In this document: positions 38,898-50,015 of the stretch, one piece after another | How the letters are laid out: every line of letters starts with the position of its first letter | Numbering within the stretch: position 1 is the first letter of the stretch | NCBI RefSeq assembly: GCF_903853455.1 | Contig: NZ_CAINTR010000187.1 | Location: 1 to 50,535 of the forward strand | Length of the DNA: 50,535 bases | Direction of reading: 5' to 3' | DNA from: an uncultured Magnetospirillum sp. | GTDB taxonomy: Bacteria; Pseudomonadota; Alphaproteobacteria; Rhodospirillales; Magnetospirillaceae | The notes under the pieces: generated by a model | What the model was told of the DNA's origin: nothing | Seen by the model: the letters and a program-made list of their open reading frames with translations, nothing else | Database searches by the model: none | Program-made: the position numbers and the translations under genes

Positions 38898-38947
38898 TTG
38901 GCGCGCCCTACTGGATTCGAACCAGTGACCTGCCGCTTAGAAGGCGG
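38898..38947. repeat. attL: 50-bp direct repeat of the tRNA-Arg 3' half
   Basis: These 50 bases are identical to 49938-49987 and correspond to the 3' half of tRNA-Arg(UCU), from the encoded CCA to the 5' arm of the anticodon stem. The copy is followed at once by unrelated sequence and the integrase gene, so it is the left attachment site of the island. Confidence 0.92.
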
Positions 38948-39120: not shown

Positions 39121-40422
39121 ATGCCGGTCAAGAAGTTAACCGAGTTCACCGTCAGCAGCGCAAAAGCACCTGCGGCGGGGCGCCTTGAACTGTGGGACAC
39201 GATCCTACAGGGGTTCGGTTTGCGGATAACCGACAAGGACGCCCGCTCATGGTTCGTCATGTACCGCATCGATACGCCCGAGGGCCGAAAGCAGCGGCGC
39301 ATGACGCTTGGTAACGCCAAGATCATCAGCCTAGCCAAGGCCCGCGAGGATGCCCGCGAGGCGCTTCAACTGGTCGAGCGGGGGATTGACCCGGTGGGGG
39401 TAAAAGCTGCTCCGCCGCTTGCTGTGGTGGCGCCAATCACCTTTGGTGAAGTTGCCGACCAGTACCTTAAAAAATACGTCAAGCGGAACACCCGGCCGAG
39501 TACATATAAAGAAACCAAACGCATCCTTGACGTGGACGTCCTGCCCAAGTGGAAGGACAAGCCCGTGGTTGAAATTCGCCGCAGGGATGTCGATGAACTT
39601 CTAGATACGATTGCCGATCGTGGTGCAGACGTCCAAGCAAACCGGACATTGGCGAGGCTTAAAACCCTGTTCAATTGGGCGGAGGAGAAGGAGTTCGTCA
39701 CGGCGTCACCGGTCCTACGGATGAAGGCCCGGACCAAAGAACGCGGGCGGGAACGCGCATTGACGGATCAGGAAATCAAATGGTTCTGGAAAAGCTGCGA
39801 TAACCTTGGGCAACCGTTTGGCCCCCTCTTCAAGCTACTGTTGCTGACAGCGCAGCGCCGGGATGAAGTCGCCACAATGGAGTGGAAAGATGTCGACCTT
39901 GAGAAGAGCGCCTGGACAATCCCCCGCCACAAGGCAAAGAACGACAGGGCGCACGGGGTTGCATTGTCCGATGTTGCCGTGAAGATCATTGGAACTCAGC
40001 CCAAGATCGTGGCGGCCAATTCCGAGGGCGAGGAAATCACGGTCCAGCAGCACTTCATCTTCACCACAAACGGCATAACGCCGGTGTCCGGGTTCAGCCG
40101 CGCCAAGGAGCGCCTGGACAAGTCCATGAACTCTCTGCGCCAGAAAGAATTAAAACTGAAGGAGGGGGAATCCGGAATTGAGGAATTCATCTTGCACGAC
40201 CTCCGCCGAACAGCTGCGACAGGTATGGCAAAACTCAACATTCCACCGCATGTGGTAGACAAGATTTTGAACCACGTCAGCGGTACAATTCGCGGCGTTG
40301 CAGCAGTTTACAATCGCCACGCCTACACGGATGAGCGAAGCGCCGCCCTGGAAACCTGGAGCAACTACATCATGGCTCTGGTCGAAGGAGCGCCTAGCAA
40401 TATCGAAGCGATGAGGGAATAG
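39121..40422 (+). CDS. Tyrosine integrase, P4/IntS type
   Basis: A 433-residue tyrosine recombinase. The N-terminal arm-binding DUF4102-type domain is seen as PVKKLTEFTVSSAKAPAAG and WDTILQGFGLRITDKDARSW. The core-binding domain covers about residues 115-195. The catalytic domain has an Arg in LLLTAQRRDEVATMEW near residue 245 and the H-x-x-R box in LHDLRRTAATGMAKL, with the tyrosine in AAVYNRHAY. It lies 173 bases from attL, as usual for tRNA-integrating islands, and probably catalysed the insertion. Confidence 0.96.
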   Translation: MPVKKLTEFTVSSAKAPAAGRLELWDTILQGFGLRITDKDARSWFVMYRIDTPEGRKQRRMTLGNAKIISLAKAREDAREALQLVERGIDPVGVKAAPPLAVVAPITFGEVADQYLKKYVKRNTRPSTYKETKRILDVDVLPKWKDKPVVEIRRRDVDELLDTIADRGADVQANRTLARLKTLFNWAEEKEFVTASPVLRMKARTKERGRERALTDQEIKWFWKSCDNLGQPFGPLFKLLLLTAQRRDEVATMEWKDVDLEKSAWTIPRHKAKNDRAHGVALSDVAVKIIGTQPKIVAANSEGEEITVQQHFIFTTNGITPVSGFSRAKERLDKSMNSLRQKELKLKEGESGIEEFILHDLRRTAATGMAKLNIPPHVVDKILNHVSGTIRGVAAVYNRHAYTDERSAALETWSNYIMALVEGAPSNIEAMRE

Positions 40423-43442: not shown

Positions 43443-44432
43443 CTATGGGAGTTTTTTCAGCAACCAGCCCCCAAGACCAAGCTCAACAATTAGCGCTGCA
43501 ATTTTTTTAGATGTCCAAACCTGTAACTCCGGCATATCATCAGGCTCTTCTAAGATTCCGCATGGTTTATGGACCGCAAATATCATTCTATCTCTCAGCC
43601 CAGAACGCCGTTCTTTGAATTTTTCGATATACTCTTTAAGAGTTTGTTGATCTGCCTTGCTCTTTACTTGTATAAAAACCCGCCCATCCAACGCAGAATT
43701 AATCGCAACCACATCGAAGCCCTCCTCAGTGGCGCCAAGACGAGAGACGCGAGTTAGGCCGCACCTGTTGCAAATCAAGTCAATAATTAACTCAAAGTCT
43801 TTCCAGCCAATATCACCTATTGCGATTTCGATTTCTTTTTCATATCGCAGCTTTGTGGCTGATAGAATTGCCTTCCCCTCGCTAACCTCTCCACGTATTG
43901 CGTGCAGTATTGGTTTCTGCTCTGATGGGGCACAGACTGTGGCGCGAAAACCGGCAACAACTCCGACAGGTCCAGGAAGGTCAATTACGGCAAGCCGGTT
44001 GCCGGTTAATGACTTATTGGTCCATTGGCGATCACAGGTAAGCCAGAAATGGCCCCGATAATCATCCTCGCCCTCACGAGCGCCAATATCATCGATAACG
44101 GTACACCACCACAAATCCCCATTTTCGAAAGTTATCCAGAGATGTTGGCTCGGATTACAAATTAAACCCCTTAATTGGTTAATGTCATTTGTTGCAGTTC
44201 CCTCTGGCATTCTAGATTTCCTATACTCTCCTCTCAATAATTTCTCAATTTCATCAAATTTTTCGCAGCACAGAAGCTCCGGGGGGACCTCTTTCCACCC
44301 TCCGTATATCCGCCCCTCATCCTTAGCCATTGGCCACCACTTCCCTCCCCGCCCATTCTTCACATACCGGACAGTGGAGATTGTCGGAGGTAGGACTGAG
44401 GGCAGAGACACCTCCCCTTCATCAGCGCTCAT
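43443..44432 (-). CDS. Candidate restriction endonuclease with Mrr-like C-terminus
   Basis: A 329-residue AT-rich gene. Residues about 215-285 have a PD-(D/E)xK nuclease pattern of the Mrr type: DFELIIDLICNRCGLTRVSR, then GFDVVAIN as the acidic position and VFIQVKSKADQQ as the QxK motif. The N-terminal half (GKWWPMAKDEGRIYGGWKEV; SQHLWITFENGDLWWCTVI) looks like a separate recognition domain that I cannot place. No methyltransferase is nearby, so a type IV, modification-dependent enzyme is the best guess. A divergent XRE gene may control it. The restriction role is inferred. Confidence 0.7.
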   Translation of the reverse strand: MSADEGEVSLPSVLPPTISTVRYVKNGRGGKWWPMAKDEGRIYGGWKEVPPELLCCEKFDEIEKLLRGEYRKSRMPEGTATNDINQLRGLICNPSQHLWITFENGDLWWCTVIDDIGAREGEDDYRGHFWLTCDRQWTNKSLTGNRLAVIDLPGPVGVVAGFRATVCAPSEQKPILHAIRGEVSEGKAILSATKLRYEKEIEIAIGDIGWKDFELIIDLICNRCGLTRVSRLGATEEGFDVVAINSALDGRVFIQVKSKADQQTLKEYIEKFKERRSGLRDRMIFAVHKPCGILEEPDDMPELQVWTSKKIAALIVELGLGGWLLKKLP

Positions 44433-44900: not shown

Positions 44901-45054
44901 GTTTTCCTGCTTTATATTAAACTTGTAGCGCTTGAATTTTGTATGGCCGCATTTATCCATGCGCTTTGATCGCATAGTCATGATATCGCGGAACAAGTCT
45001 TGGAAGTCCAGCTATCAAAATTCTGCCATGCTTGAATGTGCCTGGAGATCACTG

Positions 45055-45624
45055 ATGACTGCCCGTACTCCGCCTAATAACGCGCCGAAAACGCGGGGAC
45101 GCCCTTTCCCACCGGGCAACCCAGGCCGGCCGAAGGGCTCCCGTCACCGATTGACGGTATTGGCCGAGAAGTTGATGGAAGACGATGCAGAAGAAGTGGT
45201 GCGAGCCGTTATCGCAGCGGCCAAGGGCGGCGACATGACCGCCGCCCGTCTGGTGCTGGAGCGCATATCCCCTCCCCGCAAGGGCAGACCGGTGACGTTC
45301 GATCTTGCGCCGGGGGAAACTGCAGACGACATCCTAACTGCCCTAGGCGGTGTTGTCCGCGCTGTTGCTGGGGGAGACCTTACATGTAGTCCGGCTCTTC
45401 CTGGCCGCGCTTGCAGGCGATGTACCGTGGAATCTGGTCCATGGGGCCGGGGCGGTACAGCGCCACCACCGCGATCAGATCCTCAAACCGATCAGGTTTC
45501 ACCTCCTCCAATATCTTGCGCATGCCCGACGATTCCAGTTGGAATACTCCCGCAGTGTCGCCGTGCGCCACTAACGCATATGTCGCGGGGTCGTCCAGCG
45601 GCAGCACAGATAGGTCGATGTTGA
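45055..45624 (+). pseudogene. Truncated DUF5681 protein
   Basis: The first 108 residues (to about 45380) match DUF5681 proteins, found near phage terminase genes: RGRPFPPGNPGRPKGSRHRL, then DDAEEVVRAVIAAAKGGDMT and ARLVLERISPPRKGRPVTF. At AVAGGDLT the frame runs into the antisense of the convergent exonuclease-polymerase gene and the last 80 residues are meaningless. GGAGATC precedes the ATG at 45055. The 3' end of the gene was lost at a recombination junction near 45380. Confidence 0.75.
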
Positions 45625-48322
45625 TGCCCTTGCGTTCTTTGATAAAACCCATTGTCGCGGCGAGGGCGGTTAATACTTGTAACGGCCAAAAGACAAAAGA
45701 CTCAACCCCAGCGCAAAAAGCGTCGTATACGCGAAATTGAGTGATTGCTATCTTGTATTGAGAGTCGCAATAGACAGGGACCAATTCGTCAATCGGCCGC
45801 CCGCAAATTGCGATGTTGGCGGGATTGGGGCGAACTTCCCGAATTACCCCCTCCAGCTTTATGGCGATGTCCACGACATGCGATGCCGTCCTATCGTTCT
45901 TGCTTGCCGCTTGCAGCCGTGAATCGCCGTCCAAGAGGAAGCACCACCCCCAACGATTGCTCGGCACTTTCCTGCAAAGACGGGTGAGTTTGTCCGATGG
46001 CATCTGCAATGTTCGGCCGACGCTGCGGATCAGTTGCCTTCCCCCGTAGTCATTGACGCCGCTGATTAACGCCACATGGCGATCACCGTATTTGGTATGG
46101 ACGTAGAGAATGACCTCGTCACGCCGTTCCTGGCAGAAGTCGATGTCGAAGTAGGGCATGGAGACGCGTTCGGGATTGAGGAATCGCTCGAACAGCAGCC
46201 CCCAGCGCAGCGGGTCAATTTCGGTGATGGTGAGCGCCCAGGCCACCGCAGAACTGGCGCTCGGTCCCCGCCCTGGACCTACCAGAATGCCTTGAACCTT
46301 AGACCACTGGATGAAGTCGGCCACGATCAGGAAGTAGCCGGAAAAGCCCATCTGCTCGATAACGTTGAGCTCGAACTCCACCCGCTTACGATAGGGCTTG
46401 GCAGCGTACTCGCGCTCGTCGGCGGTCATGCCGGGCTGGAAGACATGCTTCAACAACCGCTTCTCCAACCCTTCCAGAGTCTTGGCCCGCAAGACCTCCG
46501 CCTCGGTCATGCCGTCCGTGGGAAATGACGGCAGGATCGGCTTGCGCTTGCTAATCGTGAAGGCGCATCGCCGGGCGATCGCCAGCGTGTTGTCGCAGGC
46601 TTCCGGTAGGTCTGCAAACAGGGCGCGCATCTCGGTTGGCGACTTGAAGTAATGCTCCGGGGTGAACTGGCTTCGGCGACCTTCAAGGGAAGCGCGGGCT
46701 CGTTCGCCCATCCGGATCAGGACATCATGAGCTTCATACATTCCAGGATCGGCAAAGAATGGCTCATTGGTTGCCACCAGCGGCAAGCCGTTGCGACGGG
46801 CTAACTCCACAAGCGCCGGCTCTATCCGGAGTTCACTTTCCATGCCGTGACGCATTAGCTCTACATAGAGGCGGCCTGGGAACATGACAGCCAATCGCAA
46901 TAACGCGGCTTCCGCCTTGTCGGCGCCTCCCTCGTAGAGGAGACGCCCGACCGCTCCAGCAGGACCGCCGGTGAGGGCAATCAGCCCCGCCGCATGTGAC
47001 GCAATGTCGGCTTCACTCACCTGGAGGGTGCCGCGAGGTCCGCCCACCCAGGAAGCTTTGGCCATCAGTCGCAGAAGGTTGGAATAACCCTCTTCGTTCT
47101 GGCACAATAGTACCAGTTGATCAAATCCCCGCCGCCGTCCTCTCGTTGAACCTCGATCTTCACGACGCACAGCTAGCTGACACCCGATTATTGGCTGTAT
47201 GCCCGCATCGACACAGGCTGTCGAAAACTTCAGCGCCCCGGTAAGATTGGCGGTATCCGTGATTGCCGCTGCCGGCATCGCCATGCCCCTGCACAGCTTG
47301 ACGAGTTGCTTAGGTCTGATCGCGCTCTCGCCAAGCGAGTAGTCGGTGTGGACATGCAGGTGAACAAAATCAGCACGCGGCATGACATCATTGTCTCGCA
47401 AAGTCGTGGATAAAACATTGGAGGCTTCAACATCCAGCGAAGACACCCTCTGGCAGGTCAAGCGCAACTGCCCGTCCTCCAGCTTGGCGTCCACCTCGAT
47501 CAGCAACGGGCCGCCGGCATCGAGCAATTCGCACGACACCCCAAAGACCTCGGAAAAGCAGACGACCTCGAATTTGCCAGAGGCGTCGGAGAACTCCAGG
47601 AAGGCGTAGCGCGAGCCCTTGGCCGAGACCCGCTCCTGTATGGATAACAGCGACCCCGCCAGCTTGACCTGGCCCTTGCCGCCTGATTGCAGGTGCCGGG
47701 GCAATTCCATGAACTTCAAGACGCCCAGGCGCTTCATGCTCCTGGCATAGGCATCCAACGGGTGGGCCGACATATAAGTCGTGGACAGAACCTCCTTCTC
47801 GGCACCTACCGGGTTGAGCGCGACAAGCTGAAGATAGACCTTGGCCAGCAATTCGGCATCAAGCAGGGCGCCATGCAGGGTGCGGAGGCTCGTGTTAATG
47901 TTGAAGCGGTGGCACAGCGCGTCAAGATTTGCTTCGGCACCAGGAAATCGCTGTCGCGCCATGGCTACCGTGTCGATGAAACGGCTCATGGGCAGGGTCG
48001 AACGCCCCAGCCGCACCAGCTCGGCATTGATGAAACGCATATCAAATTCGGCGTAGTGGATCACCAGCGGCGCATCGCCGATAAAAGCCAGGAACTCCTC
48101 CGCCACCTGGGCGAACAGCGGCTTGTCCGCCAGGAACTCAGCCGATAGGCCGTGGACCTCGAAAGCATCCTCCGGTATGTCCCGCTCGGGATTGAGGTAG
48201 CTGTGGAACACCTCGCCGGTGGGCAGGTGGTTGATCAGCTCGACACAGCCAATTTCGATGACACGGTGACCGGATTGCGGATCAAATCCGGTAGTTTCTG
48301 TATCAAGTATAATTTCGCGCAT
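45380..48322 (-). CDS. Fusion of DEDDh exonuclease, DnaE C-terminal OB part, PHP domain and inactive DnaE core
   Basis: A 980-residue protein. Residues 1-175 are a DnaQ-type exonuclease with all catalytic residues (D7, E9, D94, H150, D155). Residues 180-300 match the usual C-terminus of alphaproteobacterial DnaE (MSAHPLDAYARSMKRLGV and an OB domain, KLAGSLLSIQERVSAKGSRY). A PHP domain starts at 319 (HLHVHTDY), followed by the DnaE core. The core lost key residues: PDFDIDF reads PYFDIDF (Tyr724), KFDFLGL reads SFVFWPL (Val877), and GRGSGAGS reads GRGPSASS. It ends early at RGQEEPDYM, after the family's RPGPMD. ATG 48322 gives a normal epsilon start; 48358 is an alternative. It follows a small membrane-protein gene. 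Confidence 0.85.
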   Translation of the reverse strand: MREIILDTETTGFDPQSGHRVIEIGCVELINHLPTGEVFHSYLNPERDIPEDAFEVHGLSAEFLADKPLFAQVAEEFLAFIGDAPLVIHYAEFDMRFINAELVRLGRSTLPMSRFIDTVAMARQRFPGAEANLDALCHRFNINTSLRTLHGALLDAELLAKVYLQLVALNPVGAEKEVLSTTYMSAHPLDAYARSMKRLGVLKFMELPRHLQSGGKGQVKLAGSLLSIQERVSAKGSRYAFLEFSDASGKFEVVCFSEVFGVSCELLDAGGPLLIEVDAKLEDGQLRLTCQRVSSLDVEASNVLSTTLRDNDVMPRADFVHLHVHTDYSLGESAIRPKQLVKLCRGMAMPAAAITDTANLTGALKFSTACVDAGIQPIIGCQLAVRREDRGSTRGRRRGFDQLVLLCQNEEGYSNLLRLMAKASWVGGPRGTLQVSEADIASHAAGLIALTGGPAGAVGRLLYEGGADKAEAALLRLAVMFPGRLYVELMRHGMESELRIEPALVELARRNGLPLVATNEPFFADPGMYEAHDVLIRMGERARASLEGRRSQFTPEHYFKSPTEMRALFADLPEACDNTLAIARRCAFTISKRKPILPSFPTDGMTEAEVLRAKTLEGLEKRLLKHVFQPGMTADEREYAAKPYRKRVEFELNVIEQMGFSGYFLIVADFIQWSKVQGILVGPGRGPSASSAVAWALTITEIDPLRWGLLFERFLNPERVSMPYFDIDFCQERRDEVILYVHTKYGDRHVALISGVNDYGGRQLIRSVGRTLQMPSDKLTRLCRKVPSNRWGWCFLLDGDSRLQAASKNDRTASHVVDIAIKLEGVIREVRPNPANIAICGRPIDELVPVYCDSQYKIAITQFRVYDAFCAGVESFVFWPLQVLTALAATMGFIKERKGINIDLSVLPLDDPATYALVAHGDTAGVFQLESSGMRKILEEVKPDRFEDLIAVVALYRPGPMDQIPRYIACKRGQEEPDYM

Positions 48323-48367
48323 TTTGTCACCATTACTCTCAGATACCGATAATAACATACTAATCTG

Positions 48368-48670
48368 CTACCTGTTCTCGGCAGTATCAAGCATGCTGTC
48401 GTGCTCTGTAATTTGTTCGTCGTCTAAATTCCGGAGCAAAGACGGCGCCGGAAGTTCTTCAACTTCGATCTGACTTTCGAACACACGGGGCACGTATTCT
48501 GTCTCTGGTAAATTTACGACAGGCGCTAGGGGTGGTGGCGGGGATTCCTTCGCTACATTGTAAAAACCGGCACAAAGCGCGGCGATAACGAGCAATGCTA
48601 TCAGCCCGCGAAACGCCCGAGACATCAGGAACAGCCCGCCGGCTGCAAGTGTGAGAATGAGCGTTGCCAT
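48368..48670 (-). CDS. Small membrane protein upstream of the exonuclease-polymerase fusion
   Basis: A 100-residue protein with two short hydrophobic helices (MATLILTLAAGGLFLM and GLIALLVIAALCAGFYNV), then an acidic, proline-rich soluble tail (ESPPPPLAPVVNLPETEY; LPAPSLLRNLDDEQITEHDS). GGGGGAAGG precedes the ATG. It is the first gene after the palindromic operator and ends 45 bases before the fusion gene, so both should share one transcript. I do not recognise it; membrane anchors or effectors of this size occur in defence operons, but that is speculation. Confidence 0.7.
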   Translation of the reverse strand: MATLILTLAAGGLFLMSRAFRGLIALLVIAALCAGFYNVAKESPPPPLAPVVNLPETEYVPRVFESQIEVEELPAPSLLRNLDDEQITEHDSMLDTAENR

Positions 48671-48790
48671 GCCTTCCCCCCGATTGACCGAGCATTTATG
48701 CAGGAACCCTTCTTCAAAGGCAGCGGCAAAGGTATGGACACCGCCCCCATTCTACGGCACCCTTTTGCATCCATATTGTGGACGCTTTGG

Positions 48791-48827
48791 TGCCATAACG
48801 TATCTATAAACTAGATGCGTTATGGCA
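48791..48827. promoter_or_regulatory. 37-bp inverted repeat operator between the WYL gene and its divergent operon
   Basis: TGCCATAACGTATCTA (48791-48806) and TAGATGCGTTATGGCA (48812-48827) are reverse complements with one mismatch in 16, around TAAAC. It lies in the 188-base divergent region. WYL regulators of the BrxR/CapW type bind such repeats in the promoters they repress. Confidence 0.8.
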
Positions 48828-48858
48828 TAAAGTCAATCTTCTTTCTGGGAGTATTTTT

Positions 48859-49713
48859 GTGCGCTGGGGACCGGAAAAAAGGCTGGAATTCATCGAGGCC
48901 CGCCTATTTTGGGAGGGCATCATCAACCGTGGCGATCTGATCGAGGTGTTCGGCATCTCGGCGCAGCAGGCCAGCGCCGACTTCGCACGCTATCTGGAAA
49001 TAGCCCCGAACAACGCAATCTACGACCGCTCACTCAAAAGCTACGTTGCCGCCGAGGGCTTCCGTCCTGCCGTGACCCAACCGGATGCGGGGCGCTACTT
49101 GGCCCAGCTTAGGCTTGTTGGAGAGGGCGCCATAACGGAAGACAGCATCGACCTACCGTTGCCCGCGTTCGACGTGGTGCCCGGCCCAACGCGCAAAATC
49201 GGCGCGAGTGTTCTGCGATCCATTCTGGCGGCGATACGGGGACGGATGGCGGTCGAAGTGTTGTACCAATCGATGTCGCAACCCGAGCCTTCGTGGCGCT
49301 GGATCGCTCCCCACGCCGTAGCCTTTGACGGCTTCCGATGGCATGCGCGCGCCTTTTGCGACAAGGATCGGGCTTTCAAAGACTTTGTTCTGGCAAGGGT
49401 TCGGGAAACCGGCTCGTCCCGGCCCTCAGACGTGAACTCAGCAGCAGATCGCGGTTGGCACGAGCGCGTCCGGGTTATTTTTGGCCCCCATCCCGGCATG
49501 TCCGAGGGGCAGCGCAAGGCAGTTGAGGCAGATTACTCAATGACCGGGGGCGTATCGGTCATCGATGTTCGGCGGTGCTTCCTGTTCTATTTTCTCAAGA
49601 TGTACGGCCTAGACATTGACGCCAAACAGCGGCGGCCGCAGGACCAGCACATCGTGTTGCTCAACGATGAGGATGTGATGGCGGCGCTGGTGAAGGAGCG
49701 GGGCGTGGTGTGA
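48859..49713 (+). CDS. WYL-domain transcriptional regulator, BrxR/CapW-like
   Basis: A 284-residue regulator. The N-terminal winged helix shows RLEFIEARLFWEGIINRGDL and VFGISAQQASADFARYLEIA. The WYL domain covers about residues 130-200 (EVLYQSMSQPEPSWRWIAPH, then FDGFRWHARAFCDKDRAFKD). A WCX-type C-terminal domain follows, with FLFYFLKMYGLDI. This order is that of BrxR and CapW, repressors of BREX and CBASS systems. GTG is preceded by GGGAG at eight bases. It faces the membrane protein and fusion gene across the palindromic operator, so it probably represses both that operon and itself. Confidence 0.9.
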   Translation: MRWGPEKRLEFIEARLFWEGIINRGDLIEVFGISAQQASADFARYLEIAPNNAIYDRSLKSYVAAEGFRPAVTQPDAGRYLAQLRLVGEGAITEDSIDLPLPAFDVVPGPTRKIGASVLRSILAAIRGRMAVEVLYQSMSQPEPSWRWIAPHAVAFDGFRWHARAFCDKDRAFKDFVLARVRETGSSRPSDVNSAADRGWHERVRVIFGPHPGMSEGQRKAVEADYSMTGGVSVIDVRRCFLFYFLKMYGLDIDAKQRRPQDQHIVLLNDEDVMAALVKERGVV

Positions 49714-49937: not shown

Positions 49938-49987
49938 TTGGCGCGCCCTACTGGATTCGAACCAGTGACCTGCCGCTTAGAAGGCGG
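49938..49987. repeat. attR: 50-bp direct repeat inside tRNA-Arg
   Basis: These 50 bases are identical to 38898-38947. This copy is joined to the 5' part of the tRNA gene, so it marks the right junction where the tRNA was kept whole. Confidence 0.92.
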
Positions 49988-50015
49988 CTGCTCTATCCAA
50001 CTGAGCTAAGGGCGC
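49939..50015 (-). tRNA. tRNA-Arg (anticodon UCU), CCA encoded
   Basis: On the minus strand a full cloverleaf is seen: acceptor GCGCCCT/AGGGCGC, D-stem GCTC/GAGC, anticodon stem GCCGC/GCGGC with loop CTTCTAA giving anticodon TCT, T-stem ACTGG/CCAGT with TTCGAAT, discriminator G and an encoded CCA. It reads AGA arginine codons. It is the integration target of the island and was left intact. Confidence 0.96.

What the first reader, a model, noticed from the sequence alone, without database searches (positions are those of the whole stretch)
45380..49713. Candidate undescribed WYL-controlled module: small membrane protein plus exonuclease/inactive-polymerase fusion
The right end of the tRNA-Arg island holds a compact unit. 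A BrxR/CapW-like WYL repressor is divergent from a two-gene operon, with a 37-bp palindromic operator between. The operon codes for a two-helix membrane protein and a 980-residue DnaQ-DnaE-derived protein whose nuclease site is intact and whose polymerase site is not. WYL repressors of this type control several phage-defence systems, and the island carries another restriction-type gene. A nuclease guided by a polymerase-like DNA-binding body, held silent until infection, would fit. The defence role is inference.
Basis: partly seen in the sequence, partly recalled or inferred. Interest (0 to 1): 0.85.

Follow-up and report, generated by a model that had tools for sequence, protein, structure and literature searches.

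The report
WYL-controlled operon of dead replisome proteins
A small mobile island in a bacterium carries a defence-type switch gene beside inactive copies of the cell's own DNA-copying enzymes, which may be turned on during virus attack to jam DNA replication.

Summary
On an 11-kb island bounded by a 50-bp tRNA-Arg repeat, a CapW/BrxR-type WYL regulator lies divergent, across a 37-bp palindrome, from a small membrane-protein gene and a 992-codon gene. That gene joins an intact DnaQ exonuclease, the OB domain of DnaE moved from its C-terminus, and a DnaE PHP-polymerase part that has lost two of three catalytic aspartates and ends just inside the fingers. A second locus, in another genus of the family, keeps regulator (80%), membrane protein (81%) and intergenic region, but begins the operon with a DnaB helicase whose Walker A lysine is threonine; its fusion gene lacks the exonuclease and runs off the contig. 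The regulator's paralog in the window's own genome sits at a BREX locus. The fusion is a patchwork: exonuclease and OB are nearest to the resident host's genes, PHP and palm are divergent. Best reading: an inducible operon of replisome mimics that blocks replication on infection (inferred, about 0.35). Main rival: a decaying chimera, since only two loci were found and both fusion genes are cut. Eight literature searches listed no such system.

The parts
38898..38947 (.). left att repeat of the island (copy of the tRNA-Arg 3' end)
   Evidence: exact 50-bp direct repeat with 49938-49987
39121..40422 (+). tyrosine integrase of the island
   Evidence: Pfam Phage_integrase 1.7e-18; phrog_1
45380..48358 (-). 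DnaQ-OB-PHP-dead polymerase fusion, 992 codons (980 aa from Met13)
47798..48322 (-). DnaQ exonuclease domain (residues 13-187), DEDDh residues kept
   Evidence: 79% to own host DnaQ; D19 E21 D106 H162 D167
47387..47776 (-). OB domain (residues 195-324), in the host near the DnaE C-terminus (residues 961-1093)
   Evidence: 76-77% to own host DnaE
46643..47377 (-). PHP part (residues 328-572), divergent
   Evidence: 56-69% nt identity to own host dnaE; branches beside, not inside, the genus-family group
46118..46642 (-). segment 573-747, close to the genus's dnaE
   Evidence: 82-90% nt identity to own host dnaE
46151..46153 (-). Y736, at the place of catalytic D401 of E. coli alpha
45488..46117 (-). 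palm/thumb part (residues 748-957), very divergent
   Evidence: 48-64% nt identity to own host dnaE; end branch 3.09
45692..45694 (-). V889, at the place of catalytic D555 of E. coli alpha
45383..45487 (-). segment 958-992, close to host dnaE; DnaE homology ends here
   Evidence: 93% nt identity to own host; no DnaE match beyond host residue 671 in the 550 bp around the end, apart from chance-level hits
48368..48670 (-). small membrane protein, 100 aa
   Evidence: 81% homologue at the second locus; dN/dS 0.118
48791..48827 (.). 37-bp palindrome, likely WYL operator
48859..49713 (+). WYL regulator of CapW/BrxR type
   Evidence: CapW 7tb6 E 2.8e-62, BrxR 7t8k E 2.2e-43; dN/dS 0.074 against the second locus
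49938..49987 (.). right att repeat, in tRNA-Arg(TCT) 49939-50015

Best explanation
The locus is an inducible operon of replisome mimics on a mobile island. Shown: a CapW/BrxR-type regulator faces, across a palindrome, a short operon that codes in the window for a membrane protein and an exonuclease-OB-PHP-dead polymerase chimera, and in a relative for a Walker-A-mutated DnaB helicase, the same membrane protein and the same chimera's OB-PHP part. Inferred: the regulator silences the operon until infection or replication stress gives it a ligand. The products then enter or compete with the replisome: the ATPase-dead helicase as a subunit that cannot unwind, and the polymerase-dead chimera as an occupant of primer ends whose exonuclease trims the 3' end but cannot extend it. 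Replication of phage, and probably host, DNA stops. The membrane protein may tether the complex.
For: Pieces of three replisome subunits (DnaQ, DnaE, DnaB) meet in one operon type across two genera; both motor enzymes are disabled while the nuclease is intact. Regulator and membrane protein are under purifying selection between the two loci (dN/dS 0.074 over 280 codons with dS near saturation at 1.89; 0.118 over 99 codons). The intergenic region is shared (68% over 139 bp, E 3e-10). The regulator's paralog in the same genome stands before BREX genes, and 5 of 25 distinct WYL loci examined have a Brx gene in the stretch held. In the divergent PHP and palm parts the frame stays open and codon-structured (identity by codon position 0.75/0.75/0.41 and 0.53/0.68/0.41); neutral simulations kept the frame open in 19 of 2000 and 14 of 2000 draws. 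A second dead DnaB (lysine to threonine, with an HD-like extension, beside an ADP-ribosylglycohydrolase gene) occurs in a congener.
Against: Only two loci hold the module. The window's locus has no DnaB and its chimera stops just inside the fingers, so the clamp- and tau-binding parts of alpha are absent; the DnaQ part lacks the host DnaQ's C-terminal tail, which in E. coli binds alpha (recalled). The second locus lacks the exonuclease. In the palm part dN/dS against the host is 0.45 and 0.54 in two windows and not measurable (pN/pS 0.43) in a third, which relaxed or no selection on the chimera could give. The palindrome is degenerate at the second locus. No sigma-70-type promoter was found. 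The cargo matches no full PADLOC system. A fold of the chimera without relatives failed (mean pLDDT 33.6). Nothing here tests defence or toxicity.
Confidence: 0.35

Rival explanations
1. A decaying chimera. Extra copies of host replication genes were captured by the island, recombined with the resident genes, lost catalytic residues and are being whittled away by deletions; only the regulator and perhaps the membrane protein still matter.
For: The chimera's DnaE homology stops at the 3' end, where a DUF5681 gene fragment ends from the other side; DnaB gene absent from the window's island; exonuclease and most of the OB absent at the second locus; sharply uneven identity along the gene; palm end branch 3.09; a congener holds a dnaB 3' end plus HD domain without the rest of the helicase.
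Against: The 992-codon frame is intact with all exonuclease residues; open frames under neutral drift were rare in simulation (19 and 14 of 2000); third codon positions differ most; the Walker A lysine is threonine in both dead DnaBs found, each in an open frame.
Confidence: 0.3
2. Bait or decoy. The inactive copies imitate DnaB and Pol III so that phage proteins that seize or inhibit the host replisome bind them instead; the joined exonuclease (or the HD domain in the congener) is the effector.
For: Segments very close to the resident host genes are kept (exonuclease, OB, 573-747, 958-992); lambda P is thought to sequester DnaB in a dead-end complex (PMC4926192, abstract); in a congener a dead DnaB is joined to an HD-like domain (HD by its G010 relative, below Pfam's cut-off).
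Against: No phage partner is known for these hosts; high-identity segments could equally be gene conversion without selection; no bait protein of this kind stood in the lists.
Confidence: 0.2
3. Membrane-linked phage-DNA nuclease: the polymerase-like part binds phage DNA and the exonuclease degrades it, perhaps at the membrane.
For: Intact DEDDh site and a linked membrane protein; defence-type regulator.
Against: Does not explain the dead DnaB in the sister operon nor the absence of the exonuclease there; a 3'-5' exonuclease gives no self/non-self choice by itself (general knowledge).
Confidence: 0.08
4. Replication or maintenance genes of the island itself.
For: The island carries a primase-like gene and a small DNA-binding gene.
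Against: The polymerase and helicase active sites are lost, which such a role would need. Plasmid-borne dnaQ/dnaE pairs looked at for comparison have separate genes and intact polymerase motifs (2 of 2).
Confidence: 0.05

Closest known systems
BrxR / CapW WYL repressors of BREX, CBASS and other defence loci (PMC9122601, PMC9122588)
   Same: Sequence (CapW 7tb6 E 2.8e-62; BrxR 7t8k E 2.2e-43); palindrome with a 5-bp spacer, as for BrxR of pEFER (11-bp arms, 5-bp spacer; passages); Brx genes beside 5 of 25 relatives
   Different: Here the regulator is divergent from its operon, whereas its BREX paralog lies upstream of brxA in the same direction; the cargo is replisome mimics
DNA polymerase III alpha (DnaE1) and epsilon (DnaQ)
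   Same: 63% and 77% identity to the host's own proteins over the matching parts
   Different: One chain in the order exonuclease-OB-PHP-polymerase, two catalytic aspartates lost, most of fingers and the rest of the C-terminus missing
Plasmid-borne dnaQ/dnaE neighbours (Microvirga sp. VF16, Erythrobacter aureus)
   Same: exonuclease and dnaE genes side by side or one gene apart, 36-38% identity to the fusion
   Different: Separate full-length genes, polymerase motifs intact, no WYL gene in the stretch shown
PolC
   Same: Exonuclease and polymerase in one chain
   Different: PolC's exonuclease lies inside the PHP region (recalled); best models here are DnaE1 and proteobacterial DnaQ
Replicative helicase DnaB
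   Same: P0004 is 61% to the window host's DnaB
   Different: Walker A lysine to threonine, glutamine of the SQLSR motif to arginine
PADLOC candidate PDC-S48 and the CRISPR-associated DEDDh exonuclease
   Same: DEDDh exonuclease domain only
   Different: No match outside residues 16-183

Membership tests
BrxR/CapW WYL regulators | full-length sequence similarity to CapW/BrxR | tested here: met
   query 1-279 on CapW 7tb6 9-289, E 2.8e-62; BrxR 7t8k E 2.2e-43; Pfam WYL 2.1e-10
BrxR/CapW WYL regulators | palindromic site in the controlled promoter region | tested here: met
   16/5/16 palindrome, 0 of 500 shuffles as good; degenerate at the second locus; promoter itself not found
BrxR/CapW WYL regulators | repression of the operon, relieved by a ligand | not testable with these tools
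   needs a reporter assay
known phage-defence system (PADLOC models) | cargo proteins match a described system | tested here: not met
   P0002, P0004 and the congener's DnaB-HD: no model; fusion: exonuclease domain only
functional DNA polymerase III alpha | three catalytic aspartates | tested here: not met
   D401->Y736, D555->V889; intact in 28 of 28 DnaE checked
DnaQ 3'-5' exonuclease | DEDDh residues | tested here: met
   D19 E21 D106 H162 D167; TIGR01406 259.3 bits against cut-off 222.7
functional DnaB helicase (P0004, second locus) | Walker A lysine | tested here: not met
   GRPSMGTT; lysine in 30 of 31 other DnaB sequences aligned, the exception being the congener's second copy
abortive-infection / anti-phage system | protection against phage | not testable with these tools
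   needs plating assays

The most novel reading that the evidence does not exclude
A class of bacterial immunity in which inactive copies of the cell's own replisome (dead DnaB, dead Pol III alpha) are kept silent under a CapW/BrxR-type switch and released on infection to jam or bait DNA replication, with an attached exonuclease or HD enzyme as effector, and in which the copies are refreshed by recombination with the resident genes so that they stay compatible with the host replisome.
Probability: 0.25. Interest if true: 0.92.

Novelty: categorically new. Interest (0 to 1): 0.72.

Why it matters
Known inducible defences mostly cut, modify or deplete something (general knowledge). An operon whose cargo is disabled copies of the cell's own replication enzymes would be a dominant-negative way to stop phage DNA synthesis, or a bait for replisome-hijacking phage proteins. 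It would also give natural dead-subunit proteins for studying the replisome, and a case where recombination with essential genes shapes an immune gene. If the decay reading is right, it is instead a clear view of how islands capture and dismantle essential genes.

Tried and rejected
Plasmid, phage and viral-contig searches with the fusion found dnaE/dnaQ-like matches or nothing confirmed. In plasmids 9 of 3188 matching records had one place covering at least 80% of the query; of the 20 rows listed, none names a single fused gene. Two rows with an exonuclease gene near dnaE were opened: the genes are separate and the polymerase motifs intact; a third such row (Sphingosinicella) and the records not listed were not opened. 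The membrane protein was not found in viral contigs or plasmids. In the collection of one genome for each of 84,980 species the only confirmed locus was the second locus, but that scan uses two short peptide patterns and may leave out the window's own genome. In the order 2 of 317 genomes have it, the window's own included. In the family search one further match was weak (G054, E 6.6e-4), and a 30% match at G000:C189 was looked at and left. One weak WYL match (L038, 26%) was dropped before the count of 25.

Assembly artefact was considered: an intact 992-codon frame made of pieces that are not identical to the host's own genes makes it unlikely, but reads were not available. A dead-DnaB pattern gave 0 of 385 genomes of the class, a sample that held neither positive genome, and 2 of 317 of the order, the two already known; the pattern sees only lysine codons changed to ACN, AGN or ATN in GC-rich wording. 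The rest of the second locus's fusion was sought in that genome and not found. The viral-contig scan with the dead DnaB gave one 28% relative, not examined. AlphaFold on the fusion alone gave mean pLDDT 33.6 and pTM 0.24, of no use; no structure search was run on it. A dead-DnaE pattern over the order was planned but not run, the last search having gone.

The dN/dS figures compare the chimera with a live host gene, so they average over a constrained branch. The trees are quick ones with flagged long branches.

Full report
Anatomy. The window holds an island bounded by an exact 50-bp direct repeat of the tRNA-Arg(TCT) 3' end, 38898-38947 and 49938-49987. A tyrosine integrase (39121-40422) stands at its left end. 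Then come a hypothetical gene, a small DNA-binding gene (AlpA-like by eye), a primase-like gene, a resolvase and a weakly Mrr-like gene. At the right end lies the unit in question: fusion 45380-48358 (-), membrane protein 48368-48670 (-), palindrome 48791-48827 and WYL gene 48859-49713 (+). The palindrome has 16-bp arms and a 5-bp spacer; none of 500 mononucleotide shuffles of the intergenic stretch did as well.

The fusion. Against the window's own genome it matches three separate places: dnaQ (77%, residues 11-189), the C-terminal OB part of dnaE (76%, residues 194-324) and the PHP-polymerase part of dnaE (63%, residues 327-992). So the order is exonuclease-OB-PHP-polymerase, with the OB domain moved from the far end of DnaE to the front. 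The exonuclease residues are present (D19, E21, D106, H162, D167). Of the three catalytic aspartates of E. coli alpha, D401 and D555 are Y736 and V889, and D403 is kept. The aspartates at both places are intact in 28 of 28 DnaE proteins, from the window's genome and 27 relatives, and in the second locus's own genome. DnaE homology stops at host residue 671, just inside the fingers; nothing above chance follows. A DUF5681 gene fragment on the other strand meets the fusion there.

Patchwork. Nucleotide identity to the host's dnaE runs 77-81% (195-314), 56-69% (328-572), 82-90% (573-747), 48-64% (748-957) and 93% (958-992); over the first 700 codons the host dnaE is 80-94% identical to two congeners, without such steps. 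Trees by segment put the exonuclease and OB nearest the resident host's own genes (79% and 82% identity), the middle segment inside the genus-family clade, and the PHP part beside but outside it; the palm sits on an end branch of 3.09 and cannot be placed. I read this as an old, inactive DnaE copy that has recombined with the resident dnaE and dnaQ (inference). Against the host, dN/dS in the PHP part is 0.13 and 0.17 in two windows of 60 codons and saturated in two; in the palm part 0.45 and 0.54 in two and saturated in one. The comparison averages over a constrained host branch, so the palm figures are compatible with relaxed selection. Codon positions differ as in coding sequence, and neutral simulations left the frame open in 19 of 2000 and 14 of 2000 draws.

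The second locus. Among 55 genomes of the family, the membrane protein has one strong relative (81%), in G031, whose contig also holds the closest WYL relative (80%). The contig is CAIYCT010000086.1, titled uncultured Rhodospirillaceae bacterium isolate AlinenLipids_bin-2225. The layout is WYL divergent from an operon of DnaB-like gene, membrane protein and fusion. The intergenic regions are homologous, 68% over 139 bp. The DnaB-like protein (484 aa; Pfam DnaB_C 1e-80) has GRPSMGTT for GRPSMGKT and SRLSR for SQLSR; of 31 other DnaB proteins aligned, 30 have the lysine (these 31 are the loci kept from a longer match list). It is 61% to the window host's DnaB and 56% to its own genome's. The fusion gene there begins in the OB domain: exonuclease and most of the OB are absent, and the contig ends in the PHP part. 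The rest was not found elsewhere in that genome. The window's island holds no DnaB match above chance. So the two loci are reduced in different ways, and neither shows the whole operon.

A wider theme. The congener G005 holds another inactive DnaB, GRPYMGTT and SKLSR, 677 aa with an HD-like extension, directly beside an ADP-ribosylglycohydrolase gene. G010 keeps only a dnaB 3' end followed by the HD part, near an integrase. A degenerate dead-Walker-A pattern found these two dead genes in 2 of 317 genomes of the order; 0 of 385 genomes drawn from the class had it. As far as this pattern sees, inactive DnaB is rare and found only in this family.

Regulator. The WYL protein's best solved relatives are CapW and BrxR. 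Its 75% paralog in the same genome stands upstream of brxA, brxB and brxC. Of 25 distinct WYL loci examined (14 from the family search, the window's included, and 11 viral), 5 have a Brx gene within the stretch held, many of which reach only 1.5 kb. BrxR of pEFER binds 11-bp arms with a 5-bp spacer (PMC9122601, passages); CapW binds palindromes overlapping the -10 site (PMC9122588, passages). A sigma-70 scan found no promoter in the window's intergenic region.

Mechanism. Shown: the parts, their linkage in two genera, the loss of polymerase and helicase catalytic residues, the intact exonuclease residues, selection on regulator and membrane protein (dN/dS 0.074 and 0.118). Inferred: silence until infection, entry into or competition with the replisome, replication arrest. 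The poison model explains why DnaB and DnaE are the mimicked proteins and why both are dead. The bait model explains the same with phage proteins as the partner; lambda P is thought to sequester DnaB (PMC4926192, abstract). The decay model explains the truncations best and is the strongest rival.

Literature. Eight searches of the held library listed no report of inactive DnaB or DnaE copies in a defence locus; most lists were capped and most subscription papers are not held. A 2026 census of bacterial DNA polymerases (PMC12926913, passages) describes DnaQ within Pol III alpha or as a separate protein; the passages shown mention no DnaQ-OB-PHP chain.

Verdict. The defence reading is partly supported by regulator and linkage, and unproven. 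Two loci, both incomplete, are the main weakness.

Noticed in passing
L061 6935-8968 and 8975-9760 (G005:C33): A DnaB with Walker A lysine changed to threonine and a C-terminal HD-like extension, directly beside an ADP-ribosylglycohydrolase gene; separate from the WYL module.
   Followed up: partly
L140 6105-6770 (G010:C1): A dnaB 3' end runs into an HD-domain ORF next to an integrase gene, as if most of a G005-like dnaB had been deleted.
   Followed up: partly
L027 4917-11333 (G000:C186): The window's genome carries BREX genes (brxA, brxB, brxC found) downstream of a 75% paralog of the window's WYL gene.
   Followed up: yes
window 44932-45385: DUF5681 gene fragment meets the fusion's 3' end where its DnaE homology also stops: probably a recombination junction.
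   Followed up: partly
L048 503-715 (G000:C189): 70-aa ORF with 29-30% identity to the window's membrane protein, after an ORF that looks by eye like the end of an AAA-type ATPase.
   Followed up: partly
window 43443-44432: Weak Mrr-type restriction endonuclease domain (Pfam Mrr_cat, 21.4 bits against cut-off 21) on the same island.
   Followed up: no
L049 7501-11999 (G005:C33): The 63% WYL relative is followed in the same direction by ORFs that look by eye like an ankyrin-repeat protein and an HSP90-type ATPase.
   Followed up: no
L163 3965-8044 and L164 3992-9362 (plasmids): Plasmid-borne exonuclease/dnaQ and dnaE genes side by side or one gene apart, with intact polymerase motifs; accessory Pol III cores of unknown role.
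   Followed up: partly
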